NCBI GenBank assembly: GCA_030998225.1
Contig: JAPYXD010000714.1
Coordinates: forward strand, 6,634,001 to 6,698,000
Length of the DNA stretch: 64,000 nucleotides
From: Diplolepis rosae
Lineage: Eukaryota; Arthropoda; Insecta; Hymenoptera; Diplolepididae
Direction of reading: 5' to 3'
Each line of letters begins with the position of its first letter. The stretch's first letter is position 1. The translations under genes were made by a program, and so were the position numbers. The notes beneath the pieces were generated by a model. The model was given only the letters and a program-made list of their open reading frames with translations, was not told where the DNA came from and ran no database searches. Positions 4,395 to 28,197 of this stretch are shown piece by piece.

Positions 4395-5300
4395 GTGTCA
4401 ATGCTGGTGTTTTCTGCTGAAGAAGAAAAAGCGGTGGTCGGCTATGCCAAACAATGCAGCAACCATTACTACGGTCTAAGTATCATCGAATTGCGAGAGC
4501 TATCGTACCATTTTCTAAAAAAATACATGCAAAATATCCTCCAAACTGGGATACGAACGAAAGGAGTGGGCGTGATTGGTACTATGGGTTTATGGGGCGC
4601 CACCCAGAACTTACGCTGCGCACTCCCGAGCAGACGAGTTCAAATCGTGTAAAATCGTTTTCCAAAGAAAATATGCAGCTGTTTTTTCGCAATCTGGATT
4701 CGGTTTTGTCGGAGCATCCATATCAAGCGGCAGATATCTGGAATATGGATGAAACGGGCTTCTCTACAGTACCAACGAAGATTGCAAAGGTGATTTTGAT
4801 GCGAGGCATGAGAAGAGTAGGCCAAATTTTGACTCAAGCAAGAGAATCCATGATCACTATGTCTAGCGGTTAATGCAGAGGGCAATTCTATCTTACCGTT
4901 TTTTTTGTTCCCTCGCCAGAACATGCAGTCTACGTTAATGGAAAATGCATCTTCTGGGGCCATTGGCTTAGCCAATGGATCTGGGTGGACGCAGAAACCA
5001 GAATTCATTAATTATACGAAGTTCTTCGTCGATGAAGAAGAAGAAATCACCAAAATTGTTGCTGTTTGACAATCACGCTTCTCATCTTTCCGTAGAGGAA
5101 TTGGATTTTGCTGTTCGAAATGGTGTCAAATTACTCTCATTTCCGCCACACTGCAGCCATCGCTTGCAGCCCTTGGATGTCTCAGTTTACGGTCCCGTAA
5201 AAGCTTACTAGAAATCACAATGTAATGCGTGGCAAAAGAACAAAACTGATAAAGGTCTGGAAATTCGACACATCCCATGCTTAGTCCGATCCACACTGGA
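4395..5300 (+). pseudogene. pogo/Tigger-like (CENP-B/jerky type) transposase remnant
   Basis: A broken DDE transposase of the pogo branch of the Tc1/mariner superfamily, which in life would cut and paste its own element. An N-terminal helix-turn-helix portion is spread over two frames (4395-4650 and 4454-4873). The catalytic-domain hallmark IWNMDETGFSTVP (near 4737-4776) supplies the first Asp. The second-Asp block LLFDNHASHLSVEEL follows near 5060-5105, then the FPPHCSHRLQPLDV block near 5137-5184. At least two frame changes and several stops separate these parts, and the third acidic residue is not visible. It cannot encode an active enzyme. The 318-nt frame at 3972-4289 just upstream is probably leader rather than protein. 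Confidence 0.85.
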
Positions 5301-6740: not shown

Positions 6741-7590
6741 AATTAAAATACTTGAGCAATACATAAATTAAATCTAATTATACACTCAAAATTATATAGT
6801 AGAGTTTCTTCTCTGGTATAAGGCAACATTGCAAAAAATTTCATTCAAATAAAATACTCTGAATTCTTTTTGAAATACGTAATATTATTCACATATGAAT
6901 TTCATTATAAAACTGTGAATAAAAGGTTTCAGTATACAAAAAAAACAAAATTACATCTAAATTTGCATATGTTACGTCACATGTACGTAAATACTTACTT
7001 TGATCGAAGATTCCTCGTTTTAAGTTAGGATCCAATGAACCCCCCTTAGGGATGAGGATAAGTCAATGAAAAGACACAATGATTATAAAGTAAGACAATT
7101 TAAGTTTATTTGAATTATAAAAATATTATAAAATTCTAAAGTTAAATATAAAAAGTCAATCCAAATAACTAATCGATGCATACAATATGGCACAGGCAAT
7201 TGGTAAAATAACAAACTAACAAGAGAGACATTCAAATTCATTTTCTGATATAGTAACAAAATGTGAATGATAAATACAACATTCATTTCGGCGTCTGTTT
7301 TACAATTTGTATTCATTGCATTTTACTATTCGATACATTCCAATATCGAACATTTTTTTTTCTGATGTCATAAAAATTTATATTATCTTAATATTATAAT
7401 TTTTTTTTGTTATAAATAATTACATAGTTTTTTTTGAAATTGTATGAACTTAACATAAGGTTACATATGATTTTTTGTTATATAACTAAATACATCAATA
7501 ATTTTTTATTTCATATTCGTAAATTATAAATAACATGCTGTAATATAAAACGTAATTTTATGATGTCGTAGATTAGTAAAAAAATTGTTT
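6741..7590. other. Gene-free AT-rich stretch 3' of the dsRBD-zinc knuckle ORF
   Basis: Very AT-rich sequence with many short T and A runs. For the minus-strand gene block this is the downstream side. I looked for an LTR end or a polypurine tract that would close a retroelement here and found none that is convincing. Confidence 0.4.
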
Positions 7591-7593
7591 TTT

Positions 7594-8052
7594 TCAAGAA
7601 TTATTTTTATATTTTTTATTACGTAAAGGGTTGCGGCAGTTATGAGCTAAATGTCCTCTTTGAAAACACCTTTCACAAGAGTTGGTCCATTTTTGCAGGG
7701 TTTCTTTACTGATTTCATCACTTATTTTGAAAATTTTGATTTCCGGGATTAAGCTTTTTATTTCCATTTCTTCTGAAAATACGTATCTTGTGGAAAGCAT
7801 TTCCAAGAGTTTAGTTGCTGCATTTTGCTTTGCAGACTTCATTTTAGGGGCTGGTTCCCCAATACAAAGAAAAGTTATTTTATTTTTAAAGATTTCGCAA
7901 GTTGCTTGGAACGGTGGCAGTTCTTGGTGTTTTCCAAGCGATTTTACAATATACGAGGGTTCGGAGAAATCATACTCTATGCTTATTTCGTTTAAAACTT
8001 GTACAGCAGTACCTTTCGATATGTCTCTTGTCTGCAAGGCCATTGTTTTGAT
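7594..8052 (-). CDS. dsRNA-binding domain plus CCHC zinc-knuckle protein
   Basis: An open frame whose true ATG is probably at 8043 (starting MALQTRDISKG). The longer frame begins with TTG. Residues about 15-75 fit a double-stranded-RNA-binding domain: helix 1 AVQVLNEISIEYDF, then P-x-Y, a PPFQATCEI strand, and the C-terminal KSAKQNAATKLLEML helix, which in this family carries the Lys/Ala RNA-contact surface. A retroviral-type zinc knuckle follows near the C terminus (CERCFQRGHLAHNC, an intact C-x2-C-x4-H-x4-C). A good acceptor (ttttttgcag) ends 9 nt before the ATG. The host relatives of this fold are Loquacious/R2D2/TRBP-type proteins, while the knuckle looks Gag-like. A role in shielding RNA from the host RNAi machinery is inference. 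The frame is intact, unlike its relative at 12.8-14.0 kb. Confidence 0.7.
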   Translation of the reverse strand: MKTMALQTRDISKGTAVQVLNEISIEYDFSEPSYIVKSLGKHQELPPFQATCEIFKNKITFLCIGEPAPKMKSAKQNAATKLLEMLSTRYVFSEEMEIKSLIPEIKIFKISDEISKETLQKWTNSCERCFQRGHLAHNCRNPLRNKKYKNNS

Positions 8053-8500
8053 CTGCAAAAAAATTACCTGTTTGATTTGATGATTAAATTTATTAAAATT
8101 TTAAAGTTAGTTAGTTTTTTGTTAATAATTTTGTGCTTGTTGGTATATTCACTTTCCGCGTTTCCTAACTCAAAGAGATATTTCATGCAGAGAAAACAGT
8201 GGTCTGTTTTAAGATGTACCAAAAAAGTTTGTTTTTTGCCGATAGAACATATTAATTTATTAAAGTTTGTCGTTACATTATGGGGGTTAAGGAAGAAGTA
8301 GTGATGTATATGCAATATGATTTTAAACAACGAGTAAAAAATTAAAAGGGAAAATTTTTTTAAAAAAGTTACTAATAGATATTGTTTATATTTAGAAAAA
8401 AGAATAATAAAAAATATGGATTGATTTATTATTTTTATTCCTTGTTATTATAAATAATGGTGGATGCTTCGGAATCGACGTCGTTATACAATGCTTCTTG

Positions 8501-8746
8501 TTAGTATAAATGAATAACACATTCGGCACAAGTTACGCATGAATGTGCTCTTTGCCGCATGTAAAAAATTTGTGTATCGCAAAAGGAGCAGTCGAGGCTA
8601 GATAGTTTTAAGGCACAATATAAGTCTTCAGTAACTATGTGATCTATTTGGACGGGTAATGTTACTTCGGTTTCAAAGAAGCTTAGTTCTGTCATCCAAC
8701 AATCCTCGCAAACAAGTTTTTTTTCACGACCATTCATGTAGAAATT
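8501..8746 (-). CDS. Small Cys-rich (CxxC) protein, copy B
   Basis: A 78-codon frame from the ATG at 8737. It has three pairs of zinc-ligand-like cysteines: CEDC near residue 10, CSFC near 52, and CVTC/CAEC near 69-74. The last part resembles the end of the neighbouring 8947-9354 protein in spacing (CxxC, about 13-15 residues, CxxC, then an aromatic/Leu tail), so the two are probably ancient duplicates. A weaker AG lies about 9 nt before the ATG. I do not recognise a named family. It could be a truncated remnant of a longer protein. Confidence 0.4.
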   Translation of the reverse strand, partial: NFYMNGREKKLVCEDCWMTELSFFETEVTLPVQIDHIVTEDLYCALKLSSLDCSFCDTQIFYMRQRAHSCVTCAECVIHLY

Positions 8747-8946
8747 CTCGACCAGGGTTATGCAGCAGTATTCCGATCATAATTGATGTTCAAAATACGG
8801 CTGAACATCCTGCTCGCTTGCTCGAACAATATTTAAGGAATTTGAAATATTTTCAAAACTTACAATTTTTTAGTATTAAGGATTTTATTAAATTTAACAA
8901 AAATTTTCCATGCGTGATTACATGCGTGGAAAGTAGATACGTATAA

Positions 8947-9357
8947 TCATGCAGGGATATTTTCTACTAGAACTTCGGTTCCTTGACTAATATTGAATTT
9001 ATTATTTAAATATTGTTCAATACATTCTCTACAATCAGCTGCTCTTTTTCGCGGAGTAATTAATAATTCTTGACAACCGTAACAATTCATGTATATGCAT
9101 TCCAGTTTACAGATGGAATGCCATGACGTAAAAAATTCACAATTATTTTGATTGTCTTGATCTAGTTTTTCAAAACAGAATTGACAATATCTTTTTGTGG
9201 TTTGGTGATTATAATATAAAAACAATGTCGAAGGTTCTAATTCGAAGCAATAACTTTGTAATAGGTGCGCGTATGCTATCGGATATCCTTGCGGACATAC
9301 ACCGTCTACTGGTCCAAGATGGTTAACAATAGGTTCACTTGGAGTTGGTATCATTTT
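8947..9357 (-). CDS. Cys-rich (CxxC) protein, copy A
   Basis: An intact 135-codon frame. It shows YCQFC near residue 56, CKLEC and CYGC in the middle, and DCRECIEQYL toward the C terminus, a layout suggesting two treble-clef or RING-like zinc sites. There is no signal peptide and no membrane segment. A splice-acceptor-like tract (caatttgtag) stops 3 nt before the ATG, matching the pattern of its neighbours. It lies just downstream of the Env gene on the same strand, so an accessory protein of the same element is the simplest reading. I cannot name the family. Confidence 0.45.
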   Translation of the reverse strand, partial: KMIPTPSEPIVNHLGPVDGVCPQGYPIAYAHLLQSYCFELEPSTLFLYYNHQTTKRYCQFCFEKLDQDNQNNCEFFTSWHSICKLECIYMNCYGCQELLITPRKRAADCRECIEQYLNNKFNISQGTEVLVENIPA

Positions 9358-9697
9358 CTACAAATTGTTAGAATAGATTTATTTTATTAAGGTCTGATAA
9401 GGAGGTTGAATAATAACTTTGTATACATTTTCTAATCATGCAAGGTAAAAGATTTTGCTGAAAGTATCTTACTTTCCGTCAGAAAACAACTTTTATATTA
9501 CAGTTTGTTTTTTCTTTAGTAAGAAATATTAAAGGAGTGGGTACAAAAACTGTCCTTCTGACGGTATAGGATTTACAACGTTCATGCACGTGGTTTTGAG
9601 GAAGATTAGGACGGAATGTGCCTGTATCGGAAAAAATTTCTAAGGTGACTTTGAGTATATATAAAAATGGTAAAAAGAAGATAGAATAAAGGAAAGG

Positions 9698-12643
9698 TCA
9701 AAAGTTGAATGTCAAGTCGGTCAGTAAAGGTTTTGAGACTGAGCTGAAAGGAGTTTTTTGTATAAGTTCTATACGTGTTGGCGTTTTGTTTATTTTTTTA
9801 GATATTTTTTGAATTTTCGATAGTATTAATCCTAAAATTGTAATCATAAGTAATGTGATAATAATTAGTGCCAATGTTAATTTATGTGCACTAGAAATAA
9901 AAATAGATTGAATGATTTTTTGAATGTTAGCATATTTTGTAAGGATAAAGACATGGTTTTCGAAGATTGATAATAGCATGTCTTCTTCTTGTGTAAGAAG
10001 AAGTGTTACATCCCAGTAACTTTTAAAATTTTTTATTTATTATGTTAATATTAATTATGTATCAACATTACACCATAACTATTATTAATATCTCGGGTAG
10101 TAAAATAGTATTGATCAATATTATCGCTATTATGTATTGATTGCCGATGAGTCGATCACGATCAATGAATAAAAATCGATCATTGATTATGGATCATAGA
10201 TAAGAAATTGATTGACTGATCATTGGCAATCAATTAATGATCATACTTCATAAAATAAGTAACACAAATTTTAAACAAATAAATGCAGAAATGAGTAATT
10301 AAAAATGCATTTATTTGGAAACTAGATATAAAATTGGGCAATAGAAGAGAGGAACTCATGACCCCTTGCAGAGATCGTGCCTGGCCACCGATTCGCAATT
10401 CGTACGTGCCTTGCCACCGATTTGCGATTCGAACGTGCTGTGCCACCGATTTACGTTGATCTGCTCCCACTAATAGAAGCATCAATAGTATATATACCCC
10501 AGATTCACCTCTGGAGGTTTGTCATTAAGTTCCGAACAGTTGTCCGGTGTTAGGTCTGGACCGGTAATTCAACATCGTGAGCAGACCCTTCGATAAACAT
10601 AGGTCTCATTGGATTTCTATGAGCAACTCAACATTCGGTACTTGGTGAATAAAATCCTGGGTCCTTAAGTGGTGCAAGTCCCGAAACCGTAGTGCTAGAT
10701 AGTTCCTTTGGATTACATGCATCGTCGTATTTAGTCGTGTCGGTTAATAGTGATTCATTTCTGAAATCGGGAGACTCAATCACGGAGACTCAAACGAAAC
10801 CCAACTATCCTGCAAGGATTTGTGCGCGTTGACTTGCAATAATAGGAGTAATAAACGACAATTCTCTCTTTTCCCCTCTAATTTAAGAGGTAGACAAGTA
10901 AGTTACCAACTAAGTATCATTTTATGAAAACTTATGCAACAACTTATTTATTTATAATAAATTACCTTATATATTCGTAAATTCAGTGTTTTATTATCAT
11001 TGTGAACAACTCAGGGCCCATAGACCTGACAAGTGACAACGTACCCACAAACAAAAATAAATTATCAGGCCTTACCAACCTGTTATAATCAGCTAACCTC
11101 CTCCCTTACATCCAAAAATCCAACCTACCCTCGTCTTTTGCTCGGGACATAACAGAAGTAATACCCTTTTTAGTAAGTGAGGCACTTGAATAGAAATATT
11201 ATATAAAAATGGTGAAATTATAGCAAGAGAAGTGGTTGATTTGCTAACTGGAATTGAATTATCCATTATATTCAAATGGTTTTGAAGATGGTAATATGGA
11301 GTTGATGAATCGAGATTGCAACTTGACTTTGTTTGCAAAATTCCTATTCCTTGAAGTGCAATTAAGGTCTTAGAGTTTTTTCGACATGATAAGAAAATTT
11401 GTCGGGAGAAAATAGTTGAGTATAGCCATCCATGATGAAATTGCAATGGTGTTAGAAAGGGATATTCACTAAAATTGATGAATATTTCACACTTGTATGG
11501 TTGAGAATTTAGAAACATTGATGTTTCGCAAATAGGATTGTTATCGATATTAGATATAGATCTTGGTGGGTGACAAAATGTTTGGAATCCATTTTGATAA
11601 CATGCATTGAGGAAATTTTCATTTGTTGTAAAGTATGATTGGTTATTTGAAGAAATAGCGAGATAAGAATTTTGAAGTTTTATGTAAATAGAGGAAATTA
11701 CGTCAGTATTAAAATCGAGATGTATTGGAATTGGATGCGGTTTAAATAATTGAAATTCTTCACCAGATGGGATTGGTATAGTCATAATAAAAATCAAGTA
11801 CTTATCGAATAAGAAGTATTGTATTTTAGAAAATGGAAGGACCATAGAAAAAAGGGATGTTGAAAGGTGTGGGTCTTCTTTGTTGGATTTAAAGTCTAAG
11901 AAGGTATCAGGAAGTAGCATAGGGTGCCATAAATTAGTTGCGGCATGGGTAATGTAAGTTGGTCAAGGAGTAAAAGAAAAGTTTGAGAAATTTCATGCAG
12001 GTCTTTAAGCCAATTTGCTGCTAATATTCGATATAGGTGAATATTTGGATCTTTTTGAGAATTATGCCATTTTTTGTAGGTCATAATATTGTCAAGTTTT
12101 GAAGAAAGATTTGTAACTATTTGGAAAAATGGATTTGGGAGTAGAAATAAATTTTTTTTGGTCAAGTAAAGGGAGGTTTCCTGTCTCATTTTCAATTCTA
12201 AAAGTACTTTTTGTATCTGTTGCAGGAATGAATCATTAGTTTTAGAAATATTCGTGATATTACGAGCTTGTCTAGATATAAATGATATTTCTTCAACAAA
12301 ATAGTTGATTCGTTGTTCTATAAAATCAAGTTGTGTCTGATGATAGTATAAATTACAATTATTGGCAATATTTGAAAGTATGCAATATTTATATAATTTA
12401 TGTGAGAAATCTTTTATTTTATATTTAAGTACGTCTGGCTGAAAGATATCGATATAAGATATAAAATGGTAATTTTCAGAAAAAAGACGAACTTTTGGAA
12501 TTGTTTCAAAATAAATCCCTGAAGAATGAGAAAATTGTGAGTCTACGAAGTATTTTTCTGCTTTGGAGAAAAGGAGTGGAATTAAAATTAAATACAGTCT
12601 GCATGCTAGTTGATTAAGGAAATTCATTAGGCTTCTCGGAAGG
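9698..12643 (-). pseudogene. env: Baculovirus F-like / errantivirus Env, split and frameshifted
   Basis: An envelope fusion protein of the type carried by errantiviruses. It starts at the ATG at 12627 with a hydrophobic signal-like segment (CRLYLILIPLLF), then the typical N-terminal block YFETIPKVRLFSENYHF. A region with many Asn-glycosylation-like sites and paired cysteines follows. An acceptor (cttttctttttcag) ends 15 nt before the ATG, as expected for a spliced env message. Breaks: a frame change in the overlap near 11896-11920, and a 1151-bp solo LTR at 10004-11154. The frame resumes in register beyond the LTR and reaches a membrane anchor (LALIIITLLMITILGLILS) and a short tail at 9698-9979. 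I do not see a clear furin site. It is dead as a single protein, but the damage is modest. Confidence 0.75.
10004..11154. mobile_element. Solo LTR, 1151 bp, with 4-bp target duplication
   Basis: Bounded by TGTTAC...ATAACA with flanking gaag on both sides (10000-10003 and 11155-11158). It is inserted in the Env frame. The whole unit is the inverted relative of the longer LTR at 18206-20073. It contains three units of a 29-bp repeat ('ccaccgattcgcaattcgtacgtgccttg', about 10384-10460), where the other copy has four. No internal retroelement genes remain, so it is a recombined solo LTR. Confidence 0.9.
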
Positions 12644-12811
12644 CTGAAAAAGAAAAGTAGGATTAATAAAAATAGGATGTTTATATGTGGTTGGATTTAG
12701 GTCTAGAATTTTTTGGAGAAAAGGGGAAAAAGTCTACTAAATGTTGAGGAGTTTCTTGGTAGAACTGGAGGGGGAAATTGGGTTGATTTGTCTACTTTAA
12801 AAATATTTCTT

Positions 12812-14012
12812 CTACGGCGGGAAAATTCCTGTAGATTTTGTAACACTCAAAAGCATGCTACAAAATCTACAGGAATTTTCCCATGGTATTAATTTTGGTC
12901 TTGGATCGGTTTGAATGCTTTGATTTTTGGTTTTTTGCATTTTTTTATCATCATTATTATAAAAATTTTCGTCGCAGAGATCGTATGATCTGATTAGTAG
13001 TAACAATAATTTTAATGCTGCTCTATTTTCTGCTAATTCGCTAGTAGGGCCGGCTTGTATAACAAAATGTTCGTTTATATTAATTTGTGCAAGAAAAAAT
13101 GACTTTGTTTTCGAATTTGGGTCAGGATAGACTGTATATTGCGGTAACGGCAATCCATATTTTATCGTGAAGTTTCTTAAAATTTCCACATGATTTAAAA
13201 ATCCCATGGAGTCTGTTCTGTATATCTTTTTTTGGTAAGTTGGTACGTGGGTAGGCTCGTCGTAGTAATGATCCGTTGCAGTTGATTTCCTGAATCGGTA
13301 TGGAATCTTTATGTTAGAATTTATTGTACTGGTTGGGAGGTCTATATCCGCATTTAAAACATTTTTTAAAGCTTATCGTAGAGAAAGATGATGCAGTATG
13401 ATTATTATTTGTTTTCATTTTATATGAATTTGTTATTTGGCTACTCGTTGAAGGTTTTGGATCGTTTATAGATGATTCTTGAATTTTTACATGCAAATGA
13501 TCCAGTGAGTTTATCAAACTTAGATCACATTTCTCGTCTTTATGCGAAAAAGAATTAATAACTTTCATGGCAGCAAAATCCTTAGCTGTTACTATTGAGT
13601 TTGCTATTCCTGTTTGTTTAGTGTTGTTAATGATACAAATTGCTATGTATGTTGAGTCCTTCGATCAGGTTTTTATTCGTAATACTGTATATTTTGGATA
13701 CTCAAATTTTTTTGAGCGCAAATTTCGTTAAATTTTTTGCAATTTTAACTAATAGAATTTGGTTGGACGTTTTGATTTGTTTCCTTTGATTCATTAATTA
13801 AGGCATTATATAAATTTTGTGCTACCTTTTGCTTTACATTTTCTTTATCTTTGCCACTATTCATTATTATATAATTTTTATATTGTAAATTAATGTGAAA
13901 TAGACATTCATTATTATTGGTTTGTTCAATGAGTATCTCATAAATGAGGGGTGGATCTCCTCTTTGTTGAATAATTTTGTTTAGTAAGATTGTAAAAGGA
14001 ACATGCGACTTT
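12812..14012 (-). pseudogene. Decayed gene with three dsRNA-binding domains
   Basis: Three dsRBD-like modules in order on the minus strand. Module 1 (14011-13745) has helix LLNKIIQQRGDPPLIYEIL and the C-terminal VKQKVAQNLYNAL helix, and follows a good acceptor (aacatcttcag). Module 2 (about 13728-13556) has KKFEYPKYTVL, then STYIAICIINN and VTAKDFAAMKVI, with one in-frame stop. Module 3 (13207-12990) has EILRNFTIKYGLPLPQYTVY, AQININEHFVIQAG and AENRAALKLLLLL. Between modules 2 and 3 lies CFKCGYRPPN, half a zinc knuckle, and the C terminus keeps only SCRFC of another. Frame changes separate the modules. Three dsRBDs is the Loquacious/TRBP layout, although here mixed with knuckle-like cysteines. 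It is related to the intact frame at 7594-8052. Confidence 0.6.
12819..12882. repeat. Perfect 24-bp hairpin at the end of the dsRBD gene
   Basis: Arms 12819-12842 and 12859-12882 are exact reverse complements around a 16-nt loop. The structure replaces the place where the zinc knuckle ends in the intact relative. It could be a snap-back replication scar or an RNA structure. Confidence 0.85.
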
Positions 14013-14021
14013 CTGAAGATG

Positions 14022-15513
14022 TTAGATTTGTATAGAGTAGTGGGTTCTACTAAGTGCTTCTTTTAATTCAGAGTGAGGATAAAGAGTTGTGTTTGTATTA
14101 TTGTGATCTTTACCGGTAGTAGTATTTGCGTAATACGATCCAACTAATCTGTGTAGTGCATATCTATGAATAATGGTATCCGCTATCAATTTAATCCCTT
14201 TAATTATTTTTATTGATCCAATTAAGCCTGCGCTAGTAGTTCCAAAACTTGTGAAAATTGTCCAAAATTTACCCCATGCCGATATAGCAATTTTATCAAT
14301 TACATCTTTATTAAATAAATTCGTTAATGATATTCCTTGATTAATAGTTGGATGTGCTGTTATTTCTCTAGCTAAAGAATTTAGAATCATTGGTTTTTCT
14401 GCTGGAAACATAATATGATCTCGTAGTTGATCACGATTAGATTAAGAACAAATGCCATTTGTCGCTAAGAATGAAGGATTTGTGTATTTCGAGGTTGCTT
14501 CTGTGATAGGTTTGACTATAGTTGGTGCTATGGATTCGACAGGATTTGGAAGCAATTTCTATCAGATTTTTCCAAAAAGGTACATTGGCGGAAGGAAAGA
14601 ATTGCAATTTGTTTGGATACCGGATTTTGTTAATATATGAGTTCGTGGAGAAAGGAAATTGGATTGATATCCTCTAAATATTGGTAGTTGTAGATAACAT
14701 TCTTCAGTTTTGCGTTATTTTACTTCAACCGGTATACATTTTACGATATGTACTACTTCTCCTGCAATTACTGACATATATTCTGGGCCTTTCATTAAAT
14801 GATATGCAAATTCGTCTGTTGATTGGGTTGCTAAGGTTAATGTAAGTATTTCTAAAGACATGCTGTTTCAATATGCATCGTTGAGTAAGAACGTTGTGAT
14901 AAAGTCTATTTATTTCAGTACGTATGTCTCTTTCCACATATATGAATTTAGAGTTAACGTATGTCAAAATGTCCATATTTTAAACTTCTAAATGTTTATT
15001 TTCTAAAAATGAATTTCCAGGTCTGGTTTCACAAATTACGAATTTTGGATGTTCGGTTTGTATTAAAACATAACTACAAACGGGTTTTCTTGTTTTTTCA
15101 GCCAGTACGAAGGTTATATCTTCAGTCGTTAAAGAATAAAAGGTATCAGAATTGTCTGTCGTGTTGTCATAAGTTTTCTTTGCTGGTCCTTCATAAATAA
15201 TTTTATATTTGTTAAAAATACATACGTCATTAGATAATGTATCCCAGAATGTTTGTCCATATTCTACGTTTGTACATAATGTGTCTGAAAGTGTGAATGT
15301 TATTCTAGATCCTACTTTTATTTTATTTGAATTTAAATGAATATTCGCGTAATGTTCTTGTAAATTTATTTTGAATCTGTATTGGACTACGACAGTATTC
15401 CATGTTCCGTATGGGTCAGAAAATTGTGTACCAGTACAGTTTCCATTAGGTGTTACAGAAACTGCTAAAGTAAAAGCTTTGAAATGAAGTTTCATTTACT
15501 TTTAACTTTTATA
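14022..15513 (-). pseudogene. Chuvirus-type glycoprotein remnant
   Basis: A fossil of the class of envelope glycoprotein found in chuviruses and in some insect BEL/Pao-like elements. The first frame (15495-14980) has the block VTPNGNCTGTQFSDPYGTW and later VLIQTEHPKFVICE. A second part (14976-14440) is spread over two frames and includes a segment reading YMSVIAGEV near 14760. The last frame (14411-14022) carries a hydrophobic anchor-like stretch (FGTTSAGLIGSIKIIKGIKL). An acceptor (cttctcttcag) ends 18 nt before the first ATG. The N terminus is short compared with the family, and at least three frame breaks are present. Family assignment rests on remembered motif style, so it needs a profile search. 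Confidence 0.6.
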
Positions 15514-15798
15514 TCTGAAGAGAAGAGGTTACTAAAAATGTTCTTATTGTGTGCATTTGATTACATTGATCTCGTGTATGCGTGTATGCGTCCGGTTCTT
15601 TTGTTTTGATTGCTGAAAAAATATCTTTTATTATTTCTGGATTGTTTAGGTTTCTGCTCCACTTGGGAATATTACAGTCGTCTTGGTTAAAAATTCCAGT
15701 TTGAATTAAATATGGCCAGAGAGTTACCATGTTGATAAAACAGGGAACTATTTCAATGAGATCATCTATGCGTTTGCGATGAATTTGTTCCATTATAT
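15509..15798 (-). CDS. CARD-like small protein
   Basis: A 94-codon frame starting MEQIHRKRIDDLIEIV. The pattern fits a caspase-recruitment-domain helix bundle: a charged first helix, LWPYLIQTGIFNQDD in the second and third, and IIKDIFSAIKTKEPDAY in the fourth and fifth, where CARDs typically have an I-x-T-R-G-P-x-A-Y-like turn. The last 20 residues do not continue the expected helix, suggesting a late frameshift or truncation. A good acceptor (attattccag) ends 5 nt before the ATG. It is the first gene of the minus-strand block and abuts the glycoprotein. Interference with apoptosome signalling is inference. It may also be a captured host fragment. Confidence 0.5.
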
Positions 15799-15940
15799 CT
15801 GGAATAATGTGTTATGTCTGAAATTTCATTTTTATTTCGTTTTATATATTTTTTATTTTATATATAAAACATATATTTTCATTTAAAAAAAATTTATTTT
15901 TTATATTTTACTATTTATCGACAAAATAAAATTTTTATAC

Positions 15941-16202
15941 AATAAAAGATGCTGGTTTACGATCAATGAGGGTCAAATATAAAGAAGAAAACTCTTTATA
16001 GTGTCAAAATTGTTGCGACGTTTCGTTGGCTATGGGTTTGCCAACCTCATCAGGCTTTATAAAAGAAGTTTGACTCATGATTATAAAGCCTGATGAGGTT
16101 GGCAAACCCATAGCCAACGAAACGTCGCAACAATTTTGACACTATAAAGAGTTTTCTTCTTTATATTCGACCCTCATTGATCGTAAACCAGCATCTTTTA
16201 TT
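15941..16202. mobile_element. Foldback element, 122-bp arms
   Basis: Arms 15941-16062 and 16081-16202 are almost perfectly complementary (I see one mismatch) around an 18-nt centre. Both arms carry the hammerhead-like motif. Such motifs are known from the terminal repeats of Penelope-like elements and from retrozymes. This looks like two such terminal units joined head to head. Confidence 0.9.
16090..16126 (+). ncRNA. Hammerhead-ribozyme-like core
   Basis: In order: CTGATGAG (16090-16097), a 6-bp stem II (GTTGGC/GCCAAC) closed by a 9-nt loop, then GAAAC (16119-16123) and GTC (16124-16126). These are the conserved core boxes and cleavage triplet of a hammerhead. Stem III would be the bare palindrome ACGT, so cleavage would probably need a dimer, as described for minimal variants. 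The mirror copy lies at 16017-16053 on the other strand. Confidence 0.6.
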
Positions 16203-16270
16203 ATATTAATATGGAGGGTAACACTACCATTTCTACACTTCAAATTTTTATATCCTTCTTTAAACTGATA

Positions 16271-16271
<1 letters not shown>

Positions 16272-16311
<40 letters not shown>
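16272..16311. repeat. (TA)n microsatellite
   Basis: About 20 TA units. The overlapping minus-strand frame with a run of IYIYIY is an artefact of this repeat. Confidence 0.95.
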
Positions 16312-16313
<2 letters not shown>

Positions 16314-16399
16314 TTTATGATTAAAGTAAAGATATTTTGTTTCATTTTTATTAATTTTGTGCTTACACGTGAGCGTTTTAGTCTATTAATGTGAAATAC

Positions 16400-17842
16400 T
16401 GTGACGTCCTAAGTTTTAAATTAATATAAATATTTCCTACCTAAAGTCTAGAGCCAATTACCCCAACTATGTTCTAACTTTAGGTTCTGTTTATCCTCTG
16501 CTAATCGGGTACGTTCCCTAATTATCCTTGTTGACCAACAGTGGCAGGTCAATCCTTTGTTTAACAGGTATCCTTATTTTGATACCTCGATGAGAATGGC
16601 ACTAAATCCAGTTTTATCGAAATTCACTCCGTTGTTATTAGATTGGTTTTCACGAAGACGTGGAAATTATGGCCACTTAGATTTATTGCGGTACGGCGAC
16701 GAAAACCGGTTCTAATGATGCTGCTCGATCGTACGCTCCCTTAGGCTCCCTTAGACTAGACTTAGACTCGCTTAAACTCGTGTTTAGGCCTTGCAGCCTG
16801 GCTTATATTGTCGTCTGTAGTCTCAACTCGTAGGTAGAAAGTATGGGAATTTGAGTTCCATGGTTTCAATAGCTTTTTCGAAGTCCATTAGAATCTTAGG
16901 TGTCAGTGTAGTGAGTTGAGACTATGGGCCAGTTTGCTGGTGTGCTGCGTTGATGAGCTTAGGGACTCACACCGATTTTCCAAGTCCGTATGGGTCATGC
17001 TTCCGTGGTGTGGTTGTACTCACATCTTCTCTAGGGCTGTGTAAACCCCTACCACCAGGTTTTTAAGTAGATTTAGTCGCAAGAGTCAATGACATTATTT
17101 GTATACATAGGTAAGTAAAAGAGAAATTATAATACAATTGTTGTACATAAATTGTGATTATGATTTGTTTATAATTCTATTAACCTTTATATTTAAACAT
17201 TGTTTTTGTTTATAAAATAACATAATAGTGATTTGAATAGATATTAAAAAGAACATATTTTATAATTAATTGCTGATCGTTGATTAACATAAAATAAGAA
17301 TATTAACAATAATTATAATTATTATAAACACTATTATTATAAAATTTGAAGTAACATTATTATAATATTTGTTGCAACTTTCAATAACAATATGAAATAA
17401 TAATAATAATTGTGATCGATAATTATTTAAAATACAGAAATTGAAGTAACATTTTTATTATTTAATATTTGTTGCATTTTGACAGTTATTGTTAATAACA
17501 ATAAAATATTAATAATAATAGTGATTAATTTTAATACAAAGGTTGAAGTAATATTGTTGTTATATAACATTTGTTGCTTTTCGTTAATTGTTATTATTAA
17601 CAATAGTAATAATAATAGTTAATAATAATAAAAGGTAATATTTGTCGTTATTAGTATTTTATCAGTAAAATCAATTGTTTATTGATATTTTAGTTAATAG
17701 TAATAGTGAAATTATGAATATAGACAATCAGATGTATCTATCAACAATATTTATAACAATAATCAAACGTGTAATATGATATAATAGCATAATAGTATTA
17801 TATAATTATAATATATAATATAACTGTCATGGATACGTGACA
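16400..17842 (-). mobile_element. 3' LTR of the minus-strand gypsy element
   Basis: On the minus strand it begins TGTCACGTATCC, directly after the end of the integrase reading frame, and closes ...GGACGTCACA at 16400. The start matches the TGTCACGTCC start of the LTR at 24632. The inner part (17100-17820) is extremely AT-rich with many short AAT/ATT repeats. The flanking tetranucleotides (atac, ctac) do not match, as expected if the other end of the element lies elsewhere. The exact ends are my reading of TG...CA and could shift. Confidence 0.6.
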
Positions 17843-18205
17843 CTACAGAAGGTTTGCCTTTATAGCTTATTTTGACATTCCCTTTTCCTAATTTTTGCAA
17901 TATATCATAAGGCCCTGTATAATGGCTGTCAAGTTTTTTAATTTTACCTCCTTTTAATAAAAATACGTTGTCTCCAATTTTTACTTCTAAAGGATTTATT
18001 TTTTTATCATAATATATTTTCGATTTTTATTTTGCTAAAATAAGATTCTCTCTTGCTTGTGTTCGCATTTCGTGTAGTTGTTACGAAATTAATTTAATAA
18101 TCATCATACAATGGTAATTTTTCTTGTTGTGATAAAGGTTCACTGGAAGGTTCACGAGCTAGTTTACCAAAAACCAATTCATAGGGTGTGCATTTTGTGT
18201 CTTCA
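17843..18205 (-). pseudogene. pol: Gypsy integrase C-terminal part
   Basis: Continues the integrase begun at 20919 after the solo LTR. The frame picks up with CTPYELVFGKLA, the post-catalytic signature of Ty3/gypsy integrases. Near 17850-17990 it shows VKIGDNVFLLKGGKIKKL followed by YTGPYDIL, the chromodomain-less C-terminal module. One stop or frame change lies between. The frame runs straight to the LTR start. Confidence 0.75.
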
Positions 18206-20073
18206 TGTTACGTCCCGAGCAAAAGTCGAGGGTTGGTTGGATTTTTGGATGTAAGGGAGGCGGTTAGCTGATTATATCAGGTTGGTAAGGCCTGATAATT
18301 TATTTTTGTTTGTGGGTACGTTGTCACTTGTCAGGTCTATGGGCCCTGAGTTGTTCACAATGATAATAAAACACTGACTATATAAATAAATGAAATGATT
18401 TATTATGAATAAATAAAATGTTGCACAGTTTGTTACTTAGGTGATAACCTGTACCACTTCTCAAGATGAGAAGGCAATGTTATGAGTTTTATGCGGTTAT
18501 GAGCCAAATATACAGGTTTTGAGATGCCTATGTATGTAACTTCCGCAGTTGATTGTGGACGTTTTACGCTAATATACTAGGTTTTGAGATGCCTAGGTAT
18601 ACAACTCATGCTCCACATTTAGCGTTATAGTTAATATAATAAGTTTTGAGATGCTTATTTATATATATAACTTACTTGTCTACCTCTTAAATTAGAGGGC
18701 AAAAGAGAGGATTGTCGTTTATTACTCTTATTATTGCAAGTCAACGCGCACAAATCCTTGCAGGATAGTTGGGTTTCGTTTGAGTCTCCTTGAGATAGCA
18801 AAACAACGATAAATTTTGCAGGAGGTATGGTGTAAGGGATGCAAGTCCACCAGCAACTGTGTGATCAATTATCCGCTTACATATCTTGTTTAGTACACGA
18901 GAAATGAATCAAACATGCACTTGTTAACAAGATAGGTTAGTTCGTCCCGATTTCAGAAATAAATCACTATTAACCGACACGACTAAATACGACGATACAC
19001 GTAATCCAAAGGAACTATCTAGCACTACGGTTTCCAGACTTGCACCGCTTAAGGACCAAGGATTTTATTTACCAAGTACCGAATGTTGAGTTGCTCACAG
19101 AAATCCAATGAGACTTACGTTTATCGAAGGGTCTGCTCACGACGTTGAATTACCGGTCCAGACCTAACAACCGTAAAACTGTTCGGTACTTAATGACAAA
19201 CCGCCAGAGGTGAATCTGGGGTATATATACTATTGATGCTTCTATTAGTGGGGGCAGATCAATGTAAATCGGTGGCACGGCTCGTTCGAATCGTAAATCG
19301 GTGGCAAGGCACGTACGAATCGCAAATCGGTGGCAAGGCACGTACGAATTGCGAATCGGTGGCTAGGCACGATCTCTGCAAGGATTCATGAGTTCATCTC
19401 CTCTATTGCCCAATTTTATATCTAGTTTCCAAATAGATGCATTTTTAATTACTCATTTCTGCATTTATTTGTTTATAATTTATATTAGCTATTTTATGAA
19501 GTATGATCATTAATTGATTGCCAACGATCAGTCAATCGATTTCTTATCTATGATCCATAATCAATGATCGATTTTTATTCATTGATTGTGGTCGACTCAT
19601 CGGCAATCAATGGTGATAATATTGATCAATACTATTTTACTACTCGAGATATTAATAAGAGTTATGGTGTAATGTTAATACATAATTAATATTAACATAA
19701 TAATGATTATAATATTTAGACATTATAATTAATGAGGCTGTGCCGATAACTTCTCATTCTCTCATTAGGTTATTAGCACAGCGTTACTACTTTATCGGTA
19801 CGTGGTGTGAGTTACTGACTCATTACCACGGGTGTAATTACCATATAGACAGAGAGCTGTTCTTCTTTATCTCTTATTACCATGTGTCAAACCGATTCGT
19901 CGACGTGAGGTAATATAGGTTTACCTCATGCGCACAGCTACCCGGTCCATATGATAATTTATCATGGGAACACGATTATATTTGAATGGTGTCTTCTTCG
20001 CTATCCTTGGTGTTTGGCGTGTTGCCCTTGCACAGGGGCAATGAAAAATTTTTGAAGTTACTGGGATGTAACA
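18206..20073. mobile_element. Solo LTR, 1868 bp, with ttca target duplication
   Basis: Bounded by TGTTACGTCC...GGATGTAACA with ttca on both sides (18202-18205 and 20074-20077). It splits the integrase frame exactly. It is the inverted, longer relative of 10004-11154. It has four 29-bp units ('aaatcggtggcaaggcacgtacgaatcgc', starts at 19266, 19295, 19324, 19353). It also has three copies of a 'ggttttgagatgcctatgtat'-type unit between 18500 and 18670, and extra sequence at 18790-18950 and 19700-20040 that is absent from the other copy. Confidence 0.9.
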
Positions 20074-20919
20074 TTCATGTACACTAATATTATATGAAAA
20101 CATTGCTAGTTCAAGCCAATCAGCCTATTCTGTAGTTTTTGCAACAAACTGTTTAAGATACTCTCCTAAAACATTATGTAAACGTTCTAATGTTCCATTT
20201 GATTTAGAGTGACAAGCTGGAGTACGAAATTGTTTAATCCTAAAACGTTTTGGCAATCTTTTTAATAAATTACTTTAAAAATCTCTGCCTTGGTCAGTAA
20301 GTACTCCTTTCGGTGATCCAAATATGCAAATAAATTTTTTGACGACAGCATCTGCTATCGTACTAGCTTGGTGATTAGAAAGAGGTATTCCTAAAGAATA
20401 TTTGGTAAAATTGTCTTGTATCGTTAGAATATATAAGTAACCAGATTTTGTCTCAGGTAGTGGACCAACAATGTCCATTGATATTTTTTCAAAAGCAGTA
20501 GTGTGTGTGTCAGTGATTACCATAGGGTTTTTTGTTTTGACTCTGTATGTGATTAATTTTTTCAGTTGACATTGTAAACAGGCTTGAAAATATTTTTGAA
20601 TGTCTACTTTCATATTATCCCAAAAAAATTTCTGGCGAATTCGACTATAAGTTTTTGTAACGCCTTTATGGCCTCCTAATGCTGAAAAATGAACTTCTTC
20701 AATTAAATGAGTTCGTTGTTCCTTTGTTGGATATTGCATTATTCCATTGCAAACTATAATTTTTGTAGTTGAATTTGAAAAAATTGAATCAGAAATTGAT
20801 TTCACTTCTTCCCAAGGTATATGATCAATTCTGGAAGTTTTTGAAATACTAATTGATCGTAATTTAAATTTTTGAGATAATTCATGTAATGAGTGATTTG
20901 ATGATTTTATATTATTCAA
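20074..20919 (-). pseudogene. pol: Gypsy integrase: zinc finger and catalytic core
   Basis: Joins retroelement cDNA to host DNA. The H-H-C-C finger is visible as HFSALGGHKGVTKTYSRI ... CLQCQLKK. The catalytic core follows: KISMDIVGPLPETKSGYLYIL (first Asp) and GVLTDQGRDF (second Asp). The segment at 20270-20100 carries the SNGTLERLHNVLGEYL stretch with the Glu of D,D-35-E. The frame breaks between 20275 and 20270, and the coding part then ends abruptly at the solo LTR. Confidence 0.85.
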
Positions 20920-21250
20920 AGTTCCGGATAAATTGTCCTTAATTTCTTCTTCAATTGGAAGTGCAAAGAGGTAGTAGTTTCCTTTTTCGTTTCTTTTCCT
21001 ATTCCCTTTTGTAAATTTTTAAATTTTGTTAAAGTTTCACGTTTTTCTAAAGTTTTTGATCCGTTGTCGCGAGGAGTTCCATTTGTTGTAACAAAATATG
21101 CATAATTATCTTTTCGCATAGTTAATTGATCGCGAAATTCAACTAAATTTTTCCTTGTTATGGTTTTTTTTGTCTGAGAGTTTATAGGAGGAGGTTATGG
21201 AGGTGGACGGTTATAATTATCATGATCATTATCGCTTTTTCCAGAATTTA
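20916..21250 (-). pseudogene. pol: Pol segment between linker and integrase finger
   Basis: A 67-codon frame (20916-21119) starting MRKDNYAYFVTTNG. Its YAYFVT block corresponds to a YAHFIC block in the second gypsy element at about 42530, so it is a real, conserved piece of this pol lineage preceding the integrase. It is out of frame with both neighbours. Confidence 0.5.
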
Positions 21251-22335: not shown

Positions 22336-23090
22336 AGAGCGTCTGCATTTACATTAATTTTTCCTGCTTTGTGAGAATAAAAGGTTGAGAAGAATCAGGT
22401 CGTTGTAAAAGTGGTTCTTCACATAATTTTGCTTTTAAAATATCGAAAGCTGCTTGTTGTTTTTCTGTCCAATTAAAAGGTATATCTTTTTTCAGAAGTT
22501 GATTTAAAGGACTTGCAATTTTTGAAAATCCATCAATGGAAAGTTTTTTACAGCTATTAACTTTTTTGGATCTGGACGTACTCCATTTTTATCAATTATA
22601 TGACCTAAATATCCTACTTCGGGTCGTAAAAATTCGCATTTGTCTGGTTGTAAATGAAGATTCGCTTTTCTAAGTCTTTCTGCTAAATTCTTAAATTTTT
22701 TTTCAATCTTTGAAATGTGGGTGGTGCAGTTTTTAAACCGAAAGGCATTCTATCGTATTCGTAATGACCGTGAGGTGTAGAAAACGCGATTTTATGCGAG
22801 TCTCTTGGACCCATTTTTATATGGTGAAAACCGGTAGCTAAATCAAACACTGAAAAATATTTTTCTGATCCTAGAGAGTGTTATATGGTGATTGTGAGGG
22901 CTTTATTGTTTTATTTTTTAATAATTCATCGACTTGTCTTGTAATTTCTTTCTTGTGAACTGGGGGAAATCTATGTTGTCTTGAAAAAATTGGAGCGTCA
23001 TCTACAGTAGGAATTGAATGTTGTAATACGTTAGTAGCTTCAAGTGTTTCTCCTGGGATTTGAAATCTGTCTGCATTATTTTTAATTCAT
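22336..23090 (-). pseudogene. pol: Gypsy reverse transcriptase / RNase H remnant, catalytic motif deleted
   Basis: Recognisable RT blocks are [29 protein letters not shown] (with its first catalytic Asp), then KCEFLRPEVGYLGHIID and the thumb/RNase H start NWTEKQQAAFDILKAKL. An internal deletion near 22700 removes the stretch that should carry the Y-x-D-D catalytic motif. Nearly the whole RNase H is missing between 22390 and 22360. Several frame changes are present. Confidence 0.85.
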
Positions 23091-23930
23091 TTTTCTACAT
23101 GTTCATATTCATCTTGATTTAAATGGTCTAATCGAAGAAGTTTTTTAATACATTCTACTCTGTCTTCTTCTGTTACGTTATAAATTTTGCATGACTTAAT
23201 TAGAGAATTGTCAGTTCTTAAAAAGTTATTTGATATTTTACTTGATAAATTTTCGTTATTTGATTGTTTAAAATTATGTAATTTTTCAATTTGTTTATAA
23301 CATTCTTGTTCTTCAAAATCTTCTAAATTAACTATTGGGACGGATAATGTTATTGGTATTTCATTTGTATTTGCAAATTTTAAATAAGCTTTTCCCTTGT
23401 GATTTTTTACAACTGCGTCACCTACGTAGACGCCATATTGGATATGCAATCGAGGTGCATACCCTTCACTCTTTTCTGTATTTTTTATATTAACATAAAA
23501 TGTAACTTTTCGAGCTGGAATAGTAAATGTATTGGCAGATTTAAAAGGGTAACAGTGGTTCTCAATTTCTAAGTATTTTGAAGTATAGTTTATATTCACA
23601 CTATTATATTGAAAAAATTCTGATCCTAATACTCCATCTTCTTCTACTGGGATTTCATTGGGAATAATGTTAAATATTGTTGGATAACCAAAAATGTTTA
23701 TTTTCACCTGTCCTAATGTGTAAAGTGGTAAATCATTAATTCCTGTAAGTTTCAATACGTTTTGGCTATATATTGGTACTTCAGGGTTGAGAACCTTTTG
23801 TTTAATTAAATTTCGAACAGAACCAGCATCATGTGTGTTGGATTTTTTAAACCTTCCGTTGATATTATAATTGATGGAGTTGAAGTGGACTTTGAAATAT
23901 TGATTGTCGTTGTTGTATGATCGTTAAAAG
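23087..23930 (-). pseudogene. pol: Gypsy aspartic protease and linker, active site deleted
   Basis: The main frame (23755-23087) aligns closely with the plus-strand copy at 27469-28193: KLTGINDLPLYTLGQVKINIFGYPTIFN here and its counterpart there, then ILG/VLG-x-EFF. Upstream (23900-23760) the GLKNPTHMM block is present, but the following few bases that should encode D-T-G are lost with a frameshift. The C-terminal half is the linker toward RT. Confidence 0.8.
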
Positions 23931-24122: not shown

Positions 24123-24590
24123 CTATAAAAATCTATTTTCATATGGTTTATTTCGATTTTGAAACTGTCCCAAGTTAAAGTGTTTATACTGTCCTGGATT
24201 CCATTGTCTATTATTATTATTAACACTATTGTTATTATTGTAAAAATTTCTAGGAAAATTATTATTATTGTTGTATCTTTGTTGTAAAAAGTTATTATCA
24301 TTGTTTCTATAATTATTATTTCTATTTTGTAAATTATTATTGTTATTGTTATTGTTATTAAAATTATAATTTTTATTTCTTAAAAAATTGTTATTCGGAA
24401 AATTATTGTAATTGTTTCTTGAAAAATTATTATTATTGCTTCTTTGACGATTTAAATTACTATATCTTTGTTGCAAAAAATTTTTTTGTTTATTATTAAC
24501 AACTGCCACGTGGGCTTTACTTGAATGAAAACATTTTTCAGTTGTGTGACCTGGTTTTTTACAAATTAAACAAATAGTTTTTGTTTTCAA
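24123..24590 (-). pseudogene. gag: Gag nucleocapsid end with CCHC knuckle and Asn-rich tail
   Basis: Begins with an intact zinc knuckle, CLICKKPGHTTEKC, followed by about 120 residues dominated by Asn/Arg/Phe (NNNNF and NRNNN runs). It belongs to the minus-strand gypsy. Nothing of its capsid is left upstream, because the plus-strand LTR starts at 24632. Confidence 0.7.
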
Positions 24591-24631
24591 GTGCTACGTT
24601 AAATCGCGTTGTTTTATTATTTTTATTATTA

Positions 24632-25130: not shown

Positions 25131-25270
25131 AAAAAAATAAGGTTAAGTTAATTAAAGATTTATAAGAAAAGGAAAATTATTTTTATTGGAAAACAAATTA
25201 TAATATTGATAATAAATAAATTTAAAAAGTAAATTTTTGTTGTTATAACAACAAAATATGCAAAACATCA

Positions 25271-25753
25271 ATGTCGGTTCCACCCCAAGACGCCAGTAAA
25301 AAGGGTACTATGACTCGTAGCCAAACTAATAAAAATCCAACTTTAGCGGAAGAAATTAAAAGAACTTCGCAACGTCTGCTTAAACCAAAACGGAAATCCC
25401 GAGAAGATACAGATAAATTCTTGCAATATTCAGAAAAATCGAGTGCTTTAGATCAAACTGATCTTCTAGGCATCATCGTTGGAAGTATTTCTGATCCTGA
25501 TATCAGTGCTCAAAATAAACCAATAATTGAAACAAAAAACCCAAGTAGTTCATTTTTTGACAAATTAAAAACTTTCATCAGACCAAATAATAGCATCATT
25601 ATTGCAGGAGATAAGTACAACGATACACCACAAATTAACCAGTCATTTGACAATACCGCCGGAGATATAACACTAAGAGAAAAATCAATATTTGAAAGCA
25701 TCACAGCAAATTCTACTTTGTATGATAAAACTTTATCTTTAGTCTGCAACTAA
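25271..25753 (+). pseudogene. gag: Gypsy Gag N-terminal frame
   Basis: A 160-codon frame starting MSVPPQDASKKGTMTRSQ, basic at first and then Ser/Asp-rich. It ends at a stop 15 nt before the next Gag frame. No named domain. Its position directly after the LTR and before the capsid-like frame makes it the matrix-like part of the polyprotein. Confidence 0.55.
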
Positions 25754-25755
25754 AT

Positions 25756-28193: not shown

Positions 28194-28197
28194 AGAG

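What the first reader, a model, noticed from the sequence alone, without database searches (positions are those of the whole stretch)
7594..15798. Same-strand cassette: CARD-like ORF, two unrelated envelope genes, dsRBD and Cys-rich ORFs
Seen: six or seven reading frames in one orientation, coding for a CARD-like protein, a chuvirus-type glycoprotein, a three-dsRBD gene, an F-type Env, two CxxC proteins and a dsRBD-knuckle protein. Known: CARDs control apoptosome assembly, and dsRBD proteins are used by several insect viruses against RNAi. Inference: this is the 3' accessory part of one or two env-bearing retroelements, or an integrated virus, that gathered anti-defence genes. I know of no described element with this set.
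Basis: partly seen in the sequence, partly recalled or inferred. Interest (0 to 1): 0.9.

Follow-up and report, generated by a model that had tools for sequence, protein, structure and literature searches.

The report
Retroelement with two envelopes, CARD, dsRNA-binders
A repeated virus-like jumping element in an animal (probably arthropod) genome carries, behind its reverse transcriptase and integrase genes, two unrelated cell-entry genes plus a gene that looks like a cell-death adaptor and several that look like double-stranded-RNA binders, a gene set that points to an unusually well-armed insect-type retrovirus.

Summary
On the minus strand, 15811 to 7594 carries, in order: a CARD-like gene, a chuvirus-type fusion glycoprotein (GP), three dsRBDs, a baculovirus-F-type Env, two Cys-rich genes and a dsRBD-CCHC gene. 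Upstream on the same strand lie Ty3/Gypsy protease, RT, RNase H and integrase pieces. From the window's own 758-Mb genome I took 8-kb stretches of 20 of the 39 other places found: 20 of 20 keep one strand and this order (17 with three or more genes), 11 have both envelopes, 7 the CARD, 7 a gag-pol piece upstream. Database proteins join integrase to CARD, CARD to GP, GP to dsRBD and dsRBD to F. CARD, GP, dsRBD, F-core and Cys-rich frames show purifying selection between copies (pN/pS 0.30-0.57; same DNA out of frame 0.73-1.20). So it is one large LTR retroelement with an accessory gene block. Anti-RNAi and anti-apoptosis roles are inferred. The CARD is real as a gene but weakly placed as a CARD: of five members whose scores I saw, one passes Pfam's cut-off, and the fold model is poor. 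The window copy is dead.

The parts
24126..24593 (-). Gag nucleocapsid zinc-knuckle region of the same element (CX2CX4HX4C visible)
   Evidence: ORF; only a weak Pfam hint (zf-CCHC_2 0.29 on 24126-24590); matches same-strand upstream sequence in 2 of 20 copies
23090..23923 (-). aspartic-protease region
   Evidence: 48% identical to the protease ORF of element B, which matches gag-asp_proteas 0.0012, below cut-off; no Pfam hit of its own
22352..22880 (-). broken reverse transcriptase and RNase H pieces
   Evidence: RVT_1 2.1e-10 and 1.9e-4 (the latter below cut-off), RT_RNaseH_2 3.6e-7
20278..21018 (-). integrase, zinc-binding and core domain
   Evidence: Integrase_H2C2 2.3e-19, rve 9.1e-11 on 20278-20919
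18206..20073 (.). later insertion: solo LTR inside the integrase, 4-bp duplication TGAA on both sides
   Evidence: junctions; inverted copy
17766..18026 (-). integrase C-terminal SH3-like domain
   Evidence: SH3_Tf2-1 5.5e-4, below cut-off; joined to CARD in P0101
15512..15793 (-). CARD-like gene, C-terminus lost in this copy
   Evidence: 46 homologs; PF00619 in 22 of 34 rows at E<=0.1; pN/pS 0.46
14025..15495 (-). chuvirus-type (Monjiviricetes) fusion glycoprotein, N-terminus deleted, frameshifted
   Evidence: PF24664 8.5e-46, 2.6e-15, 1.6e-27
13748..14062 (-). dsRBD 1
   Evidence: dsrm 0.019, below cut-off; pN/pS 0.38
13317..13664 (-). second half of dsRBD 2 and linker
   Evidence: no dsrm hit of its own; relative P0156 scores dsrm 1.7e-6 and maps with dsRBD1-2 to 13864-13362
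12815..13372 (-). dsRBD 3; intact relatives end in a CCHC knuckle and a proline-rich tail, both lost here
   Evidence: dsrm 8.3e-4, below cut-off; 57 homologs; A4
11156..12696 (-). baculovirus-F-type Env, main part, frameshifted
   Evidence: Baculo_F 1.2e-18 and 4.5e-4
10004..11154 (.). later insertion: solo LTR in the F gene, 4-bp duplication CTTC on both sides
   Evidence: same family, opposite orientation, as 18206-20073
9701..10003 (-). F Env transmembrane end (the ORF of 9701-10036 begins inside the solo LTR)
   Evidence: hydrophobic stretch; follows the F body in other copies; no Baculo_F hit of its own
8950..9357 (-). Cys-rich gene CxxC1
   Evidence: pN/pS 0.38, controls 0.96 and 1.15; alignment A5
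8504..8776 (-). Cys-rich gene CxxC2
   Evidence: pN/pS 0.30, controls 1.05 and 1.20; alignment A6
7597..8043 (-). dsRBD plus C-terminal CCHC knuckle, 149 aa, open in this copy
   Evidence: dsrm 3.9e-6; zf-CCHC_3 2.9e-4, below cut-off; 63 homologs; A3
6970..7224 (-). remaining 3' end of the 3' LTR, ending GTGACGTAACA; its 5' part and the polypurine tract are deleted here
   Evidence: similarity of copies stops at this point

Best explanation
It is the 3' accessory region of a multicopy Ty3/Gypsy-type LTR retroelement (LTR - gag - PR-RT-RH-IN - CARD - chuvirus-type GP - dsRBD gene(s) - F-type Env - CxxC1 - CxxC2 - dsRBD-CCHC - LTR). Shown: the gene set, its order and strand in many copies, its linkage to gag-pol pieces, LTR sequence at its ends, and purifying selection on most frames while the element spread. 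Inferred: the element was or is an enveloped retrovirus-like agent. The two unrelated fusion proteins serve entry into cells, perhaps different ones. The dsRBD proteins bind double-stranded RNA and shield it from Dicer-2; the dsRBD-CCHC family is the best candidate because it keeps the basic KK-x2-K motif at the start of the last helix. The CARD-only protein docks on CARD proteins of the host apoptosome and blocks cell death. The Cys-rich proteins are small zinc-binding cofactors of unknown target.
For: Same strand and order in 20 of 20 fetched copies, non-trivially in 17; both envelopes in 11; CARD in 7; a gag-pol piece on the same strand upstream in 7. 19 of 19 multi-part homologous proteins, of 166 examined, agree with the window's order; 9 of these, by my reading, join different genes or domains. 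P0101 joins the integrase end to CARD, P0102 CARD to CxxC2, P0158 GP to dsRBD3, P0133 dsRBD3 to F; P0107 joins CARD to the GP N-terminus. pN/pS 0.30-0.57 in frame for CARD, GP, dsRBD1, dsRBD3, F core, CxxC1, CxxC2 and dsRBD-CCHC; 0.73-1.20 out of frame. Polypurine tract followed by TGTCACGTCC (TGTCACCTCC in one of three), and a common terminus ACGTAACA. The C363 copy has LTR sequence at both ends.
Against: No function was measured. The CARD assignment is weak: no CARD among the PDB matches by sequence, a low-confidence model (pLDDT 68) and no significant fold match (best E 2.7). dsRBD3 lacks the basic motif (A4), and the window's own dsRBD-CCHC copy has lost one of its lysines (A3). No clean target-site duplication was found for a whole copy: TTTA vs TGTA in C363; in C427 the two LTRs are only 70% alike. 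A 5' LTR turned up in only 3 of 12 stretches looked at. F's N-terminal part and tail are not distinguishable from their controls (0.73 vs 0.79 and 0.91; 0.73 vs 0.66 and 0.94).
Confidence: 0.78

Rival explanations
1. Chance pile-up: several unrelated elements (two env elements, a viral integration, host genes) nested side by side in one repeat-rich place.
For: The window is full of nested elements: two solo LTRs, a second Gypsy element head to head at 25226-28311 and a third with its own F env at 39660-45198.
Against: The same order and strand in 20 of 20 other copies, and joined proteins elsewhere.
Confidence: 0.02
2. The dsRBD-CCHC, dsRBD and CxxC proteins are not defence blockers but handle the element's own RNA (export, packaging, translation), in the way of retroviral nucleocapsid or Rev-type proteins; CCHC knuckles fit this.
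For: Both dsRBD families end in the knuckle CX2CX4HX4C (A3, A4), as in Gag nucleocapsid.
Against: dsRBDs recognise duplex RNA with little sequence preference (established knowledge); CARD and dsRBD in one element fit evasion better (inference).
Confidence: 0.35
3. The block is an integrated RNA or DNA virus that only lies beside Gypsy sequence, or a separate mobile unit.
For: Chuvirus GP and baculovirus F are viral genes; 13 of 20 stretches show no gag-pol piece on the cassette's strand (8 kb may often end before it).
Against: Pol pieces upstream in 7 of 20, P0101, LTR termini beyond the last gene shared by copies; no polymerase, nucleoprotein or capsid domain of such a virus turned up in the Pfam scans of the frames, though none was searched for specially.
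Confidence: 0.04
4. The CARD-like gene is another small helical protein and not a death-fold adaptor.
For: Of the five full CARD-type proteins whose scores I saw, only P0090 passes the curated cut-off; Foldseek best E 2.7; under VIA-align an unrelated membrane protein ranks above the CARDs.
Against: 22 of 34 aligned rows match PF00619, and the only other family matched in more than one row (3 rows) is at E 0.059 or worse; CARD entries (Apaf-1/caspase-9, MAVS, Dark/Dronc) recur among the weak fold matches.
Confidence: 0.15

Closest known systems
Insect endogenous retroviruses / errantiviruses (gypsy, ZAM; Metaviridae)
   Same: LTR elements with a baculovirus-F-type env as a third ORF (PMC12992720, passages seen)
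   Different: here a second, unrelated fusogen, a CARD-like gene, several dsRBDs and Cys-rich genes also follow pol
BEL/Pao elements with a captured chuvirus glycoprotein (Anakin, mosquitoes)
   Same: LTR element with a Jingchuvirales-type glycoprotein (PMC10084718, passages seen)
   Different: that is Pao; the same paper reports no clear evidence of such capture by Gypsy, whereas this is Gypsy-type pol
Bdelloid rotifer LTR retrotransposons with extra ORF3s
   Same: capture of diverse additional genes behind pol (PMC5408684, passages seen)
   Different: those ORFs are lipase, exonuclease or paramyxovirus-type env; no dsRBD or CARD in the passages seen ('double-stranded RNA' and 'dsRNA' occur 0 times in the main text)
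Insect-virus dsRBD suppressors of RNAi (IIV-6 340R, DCV 1A)
   Same: small viral dsRNA-binding proteins; a dsDNA-virus example is PMC4231766 (search listing seen only); the names 340R and DCV 1A are recalled
   Different: those belong to exogenous viruses and carry no CCHC knuckle as far as I recall
Viral CARD proteins (equine herpesvirus 2 E10; recalled)
   Same: CARD carried by a virus
   Different: herpesvirus protein; no retroelement example found in the searches named

Membership tests
Ty3/Gypsy LTR retroelement (Metaviridae) | PR-RT-RNaseH-IN order | tested here: met
   PR region 23923-23090 (by similarity to element B), RVT_1 and RT_RNaseH_2 22880-22352, IN 21018-20278 and 18026-17766, all minus strand
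Ty3/Gypsy LTR retroelement (Metaviridae) | RT phylogeny within the family | not tested
   RT is broken in the window; no tree was built
Ty3/Gypsy LTR retroelement (Metaviridae) | LTRs TG...CA with polypurine tract and target-site duplication | tested here: inconclusive
   TG...CA ends and polypurine tract seen; LTR sequence at both ends of C363; no perfect duplication
Errantivirus / insect ERV | F-type Env | tested here: met
   Baculo_F 1.2e-18
Jingchuvirales-type glycoprotein | PF24664 match | tested here: met
   8.5e-46
dsRBD | dsrm profile above cut-off | tested here: met
   window dsRBD-CCHC 27.8 vs 23 bits; P0156 28.9 vs 23. Below cut-off: window dsRBD1 and dsRBD3, P0110 20.4; no hit: P0134, P0131
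dsRBD able to bind dsRNA | basic KK-x2-K motif at the last helix (recalled) | tested here: met
   K68, K69 and K72 nearly invariant in A3, but M at 68 in the window copy; motif absent in dsRBD3 (A4). Binding itself was not tested
CARD | PF00619 above cut-off | tested here: met
   met by one relative, P0090 (25.5 vs 23.9 bits); P0065, P0066, P0075 and P0083 are below; the window ORF has no hit
CARD | six-helix death fold | tested here: inconclusive
   two low-confidence models; weak CARD matches without significance for the first; the second was not searched
RNAi suppressor / apoptosis inhibitor | activity | not testable with these tools
   needs experiments

The most novel reading that the evidence does not exclude
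A 'complex retrovirus' of arthropods: a Ty3/Gypsy endogenous retrovirus that uses two independently acquired fusion systems (chuvirus class and baculovirus-F class) and carries dedicated suppressors of both main insect antiviral responses, RNAi (dsRBD-CCHC proteins) and apoptosis (a CARD-only protein), as a stable, selected gene block in at least dozens of copies, possibly hundreds.
Probability: 0.5. Interest if true: 0.93.

Novelty: new variant of a known kind. Interest (0 to 1): 0.83.

Why it matters
Insect endogenous retroviruses are described as gag, pol and one env (PMC12992720, passages; otherwise recalled). An element with two unrelated entry proteins, a CARD-like gene and four dsRBDs would be the insect counterpart of complex retroviruses, and would suggest that LTR elements in insects fight RNAi and cell death with genes of their own. 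It also offers an answer to why chuvirus-type glycoproteins are so abundant in some arthropod genomes: PMC10084718 found them next to Gypsy fragments in Hymenoptera without clear evidence of capture, and PMC6540820 found 224 of them in an ant-specific lineage (passages seen of both); a Gypsy-type carrier would explain both. Each accessory protein is small and can be tested singly.

Tried and rejected
Viral contigs: dsRBD-CCHC and CARD queries found no relative in IMG/VR (15 and 438 pattern matches, 0 confirmed). PDB by sequence: for CARD singly nothing better than E 0.27; its profile meets a designed helical repeat protein (9.4e-5, but no single stretch better than 7.8) and two chains at 0.29 and 0.98; nothing for CxxC1 or CxxC2 singly or for the CxxC1 profile; the dsRBD-CCHC profile meets Dicer-like 1 (0.0018). 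Rfam: no match in the window at gathering scores. NCBIfam: only matches below the cut-offs, among them RNaseIII 0.0015 on dsRBD1. The second CARD model was not fold-searched. Splice-acceptor idea: pyrimidine-AG stretches lie before the starts, but 27% of the 179 minus-strand ATGs in 7000-18100 score as well as the CARD and dsRBD-CCHC ones; F (1.1%) and CxxC1 (3.9%) stand out; not used. CxxC1 and CxxC2 as paralogs: BLASTP E 0.003 for a single comparison, hhalign probability 4.6%: undecided. The two dsRBD-CCHC families are probably related (hhalign 81%, E 1.3e-5). CxxC3 (8064-8444) dropped as a gene, although P0034 and P0042 join a short stretch of it to the dsRBD (by eye). 5' LTR: found in 3 of 12 upstream stretches (L040, L045, L047), not in L038, L044, L046 or L050-L055. 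Clean TSD of a whole copy: not found. Absence from print: nine of ten paper searches list no paper that by title or abstract start describes this gene set; listings were partial (30 of 83; 30 of 31; 15 of 17; 15 of 49; 11 of 12); the library lacks most subscription journals; I read passages only and one abstract with outline.
Full report
What is there. All genes of the finding lie on the minus strand. Read 5' to 3' (falling coordinates) they are: CARD-like ORF 15793-15512; chuvirus-type glycoprotein (GP) 15495-14025 in several frames; dsRBD1 14062-13748; half of dsRBD2 13664-13317; dsRBD3 13372-12815; F-type Env 12696-11156 and 10003-9701; CxxC1 9357-8950; CxxC2 8776-8504; dsRBD-CCHC 8043-7597. 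Pfam confirms GP (8.5e-46), F (1.2e-18) and the dsRBD of the last gene (3.9e-6); its knuckle (2.9e-4) and two other dsRBD pieces (8.3e-4; 0.019) are below the cut-offs. The Cys-rich proteins match nothing better than E 0.56.

The copy in the window is dead. Two solo LTRs of one family sit inside it, one in the integrase (18206-20073, duplication TGAA) and one in F (10004-11154, duplication CTTC). A deletion joins CARD to GP: the tail of the window's CARD ORF matches a stretch between the two ends of the deleted GP part in 7 of the 20 other copies, and in three places of the genome search the two parts of the CARD query lie apart. GP, F and the dsRBD stretch carry frameshifts or stops.

What lies upstream. 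On the same strand follow, from 24593 down to 17766, a Gag knuckle region, a protease region, RVT_1 and RT_RNaseH_2 pieces, and an H2C2-rve integrase with its C-terminal domain. This is the Ty3/Gypsy order. The 2 kb between integrase and CARD hold repeats and a 132-nt hairpin.

Are the genes families? Searches of 5.8 billion predicted proteins gave 63 relatives for the dsRBD-CCHC frame, 46 for CARD and 57 for dsRBD3. Full-length forms are 15 of 63 (147-149 aa), 21 of 46 (93 aa) and 2 of 57 (P0110, 194 aa; P0134, 193 aa, 59% identical). Several database proteins are joints of two genes. P0101 joins the integrase end to CARD, P0102 CARD to CxxC2, P0158 GP to dsRBD3, P0133 dsRBD3 to F, P0156 dsRBD1-2 to F; P0107 joins CARD to the GP N-terminus. 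Of 166 proteins, 147 map as one chain and 19 as several; 19 of 19 keep the window's strand and order, 9 of them, by my reading, across different genes or domains (P0101, P0102, P0129, P0131, P0132, P0133, P0156, P0158, P0164). They look like internal deletions of one kind of element.

Other genomic copies. The window's genome (758 Mb, 428 contigs) answered two searches. The piece 7594-8500 has 40 matches, which is all that were scored out of 724 candidates; the CARD piece 43 matches from 40 scored of 1161 candidates. Candidate numbers are not confirmed copies. Of the 39 places other than the window I took 20 (the 19 best scoring and one lower), with 8 kb upstream. In 20 of 20 the genes found are on one strand and in the same order; 3 of the 20 show only CxxC2 and dsRBD-CCHC, so 17 are informative. 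Both envelopes are present in 11, GP in 11, CARD in 7, dsRBD1-2 in 11, dsRBD3 in 14, F in 16, CxxC1 in 16, CxxC2 in 20; a Gag, protease or integrase piece lies upstream on the same strand in 7. Two stretches have such a piece on the other strand only. Loss is expected, since copies are old: over a weakly constrained stretch of 21 copies the median pairwise divergence is 7.7%, range 3.2-12.2%.

Ends. Similarity downstream of the last gene stops at one common point...GTGACGTAACA, at 6970 in the window and in six other copies looked at. In three other copies a polypurine tract is followed by TGTCACGTCC (twice) or TGTCACCTCC (once), giving LTRs of 682-794 bp. The C363 copy has this LTR at both ends, 562731 and 581708, with gag pieces after the first. 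Its flanks read TTTA and TGTA, not a perfect duplication, and its LTRs are 84-94% alike; in C427 the two LTRs are only 70% alike; C202 has a damaged pair. In all, 3 of 12 stretches taken on the 5' side held this LTR; several were guessed places.

Selection. Between the copies (8 to 21 per gene, window included) pooled pN/pS is: CARD 0.46, GP 0.53 and 0.50, dsRBD1 0.38, dsRBD3-CCHC 0.57, F core 0.44, CxxC1 0.38, CxxC2 0.30, dsRBD-CCHC 0.57; the same DNA read out of frame gives 0.73-1.20 for these genes. The first part of F (0.73), its tail (0.73) and the frame CxxC3 (0.80) do not stand out from their controls. Pairs are not independent and no significance was computed; leaving out any one copy moves no value by more than 0.08.

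Compared with what is known. Insect ERVs carry an F-type env as third ORF (PMC12992720, passages). Chuvirus-type glycoproteins were captured by Pao elements; for Gypsy, PMC10084718 (passages) reports association in Hymenoptera and no clear evidence of capture. This element supplies such a case, in a genome whose name is not given. Extra genes in LTR elements are known from rotifers (PMC5408684, passages). I found no description of an LTR element with CARD or dsRBD genes in the searches listed under Tried and rejected.

Verdict. A real, repeated, selected gene block of a Gypsy-type endogenous retrovirus; new in its gene content as far as the searches reach; function open and testable.

Noticed in passing
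36867-37454 (+): A diverged dsRBD-CCHC relative (31% identity) lies on the plus strand about 9 kb downstream of a second Gypsy element, B (25226-28311), whose protease is 48% identical to that of the main element: a sister lineage may carry the same last gene.
   Followed up: partly
39660-45198 (-): A third Gypsy element with an F-type Env (Baculo_F 6.9e-8 and 7.1e-8) and an integrase 35% identical to that of the main element; apart from its own F, no cassette gene matched next to it with confidence.
   Followed up: partly
12809-12865: The window copy of dsRBD3 ends in a short inverted duplication: the stretch matches the same protein part on both strands, where intact relatives have the CCHC knuckle.
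   Followed up: no
15931-16212: 132-nt inverted repeat, 97% complementary, 18-nt loop, just upstream of the CARD gene; may be a fold-back element.
   Followed up: no
17383-17617: 102-bp tandem repeat, 2.2 copies, AT-rich, between integrase and CARD.
   Followed up: no
P0086, P0106: Two CARD homologs run on into a shared segment (a common WDYEASFWHCS stretch) that I did not place; it may belong between CARD and GP.
   Followed up: no
4972-5208 (+): DDE_1 transposase piece (8.8e-9); the neighbouring ORF 4421-4873 looks like its other part by eye, with no Pfam hit.
   Followed up: partly
58871-59769: 100-bp satellite, about 7 copies.
   Followed up: no
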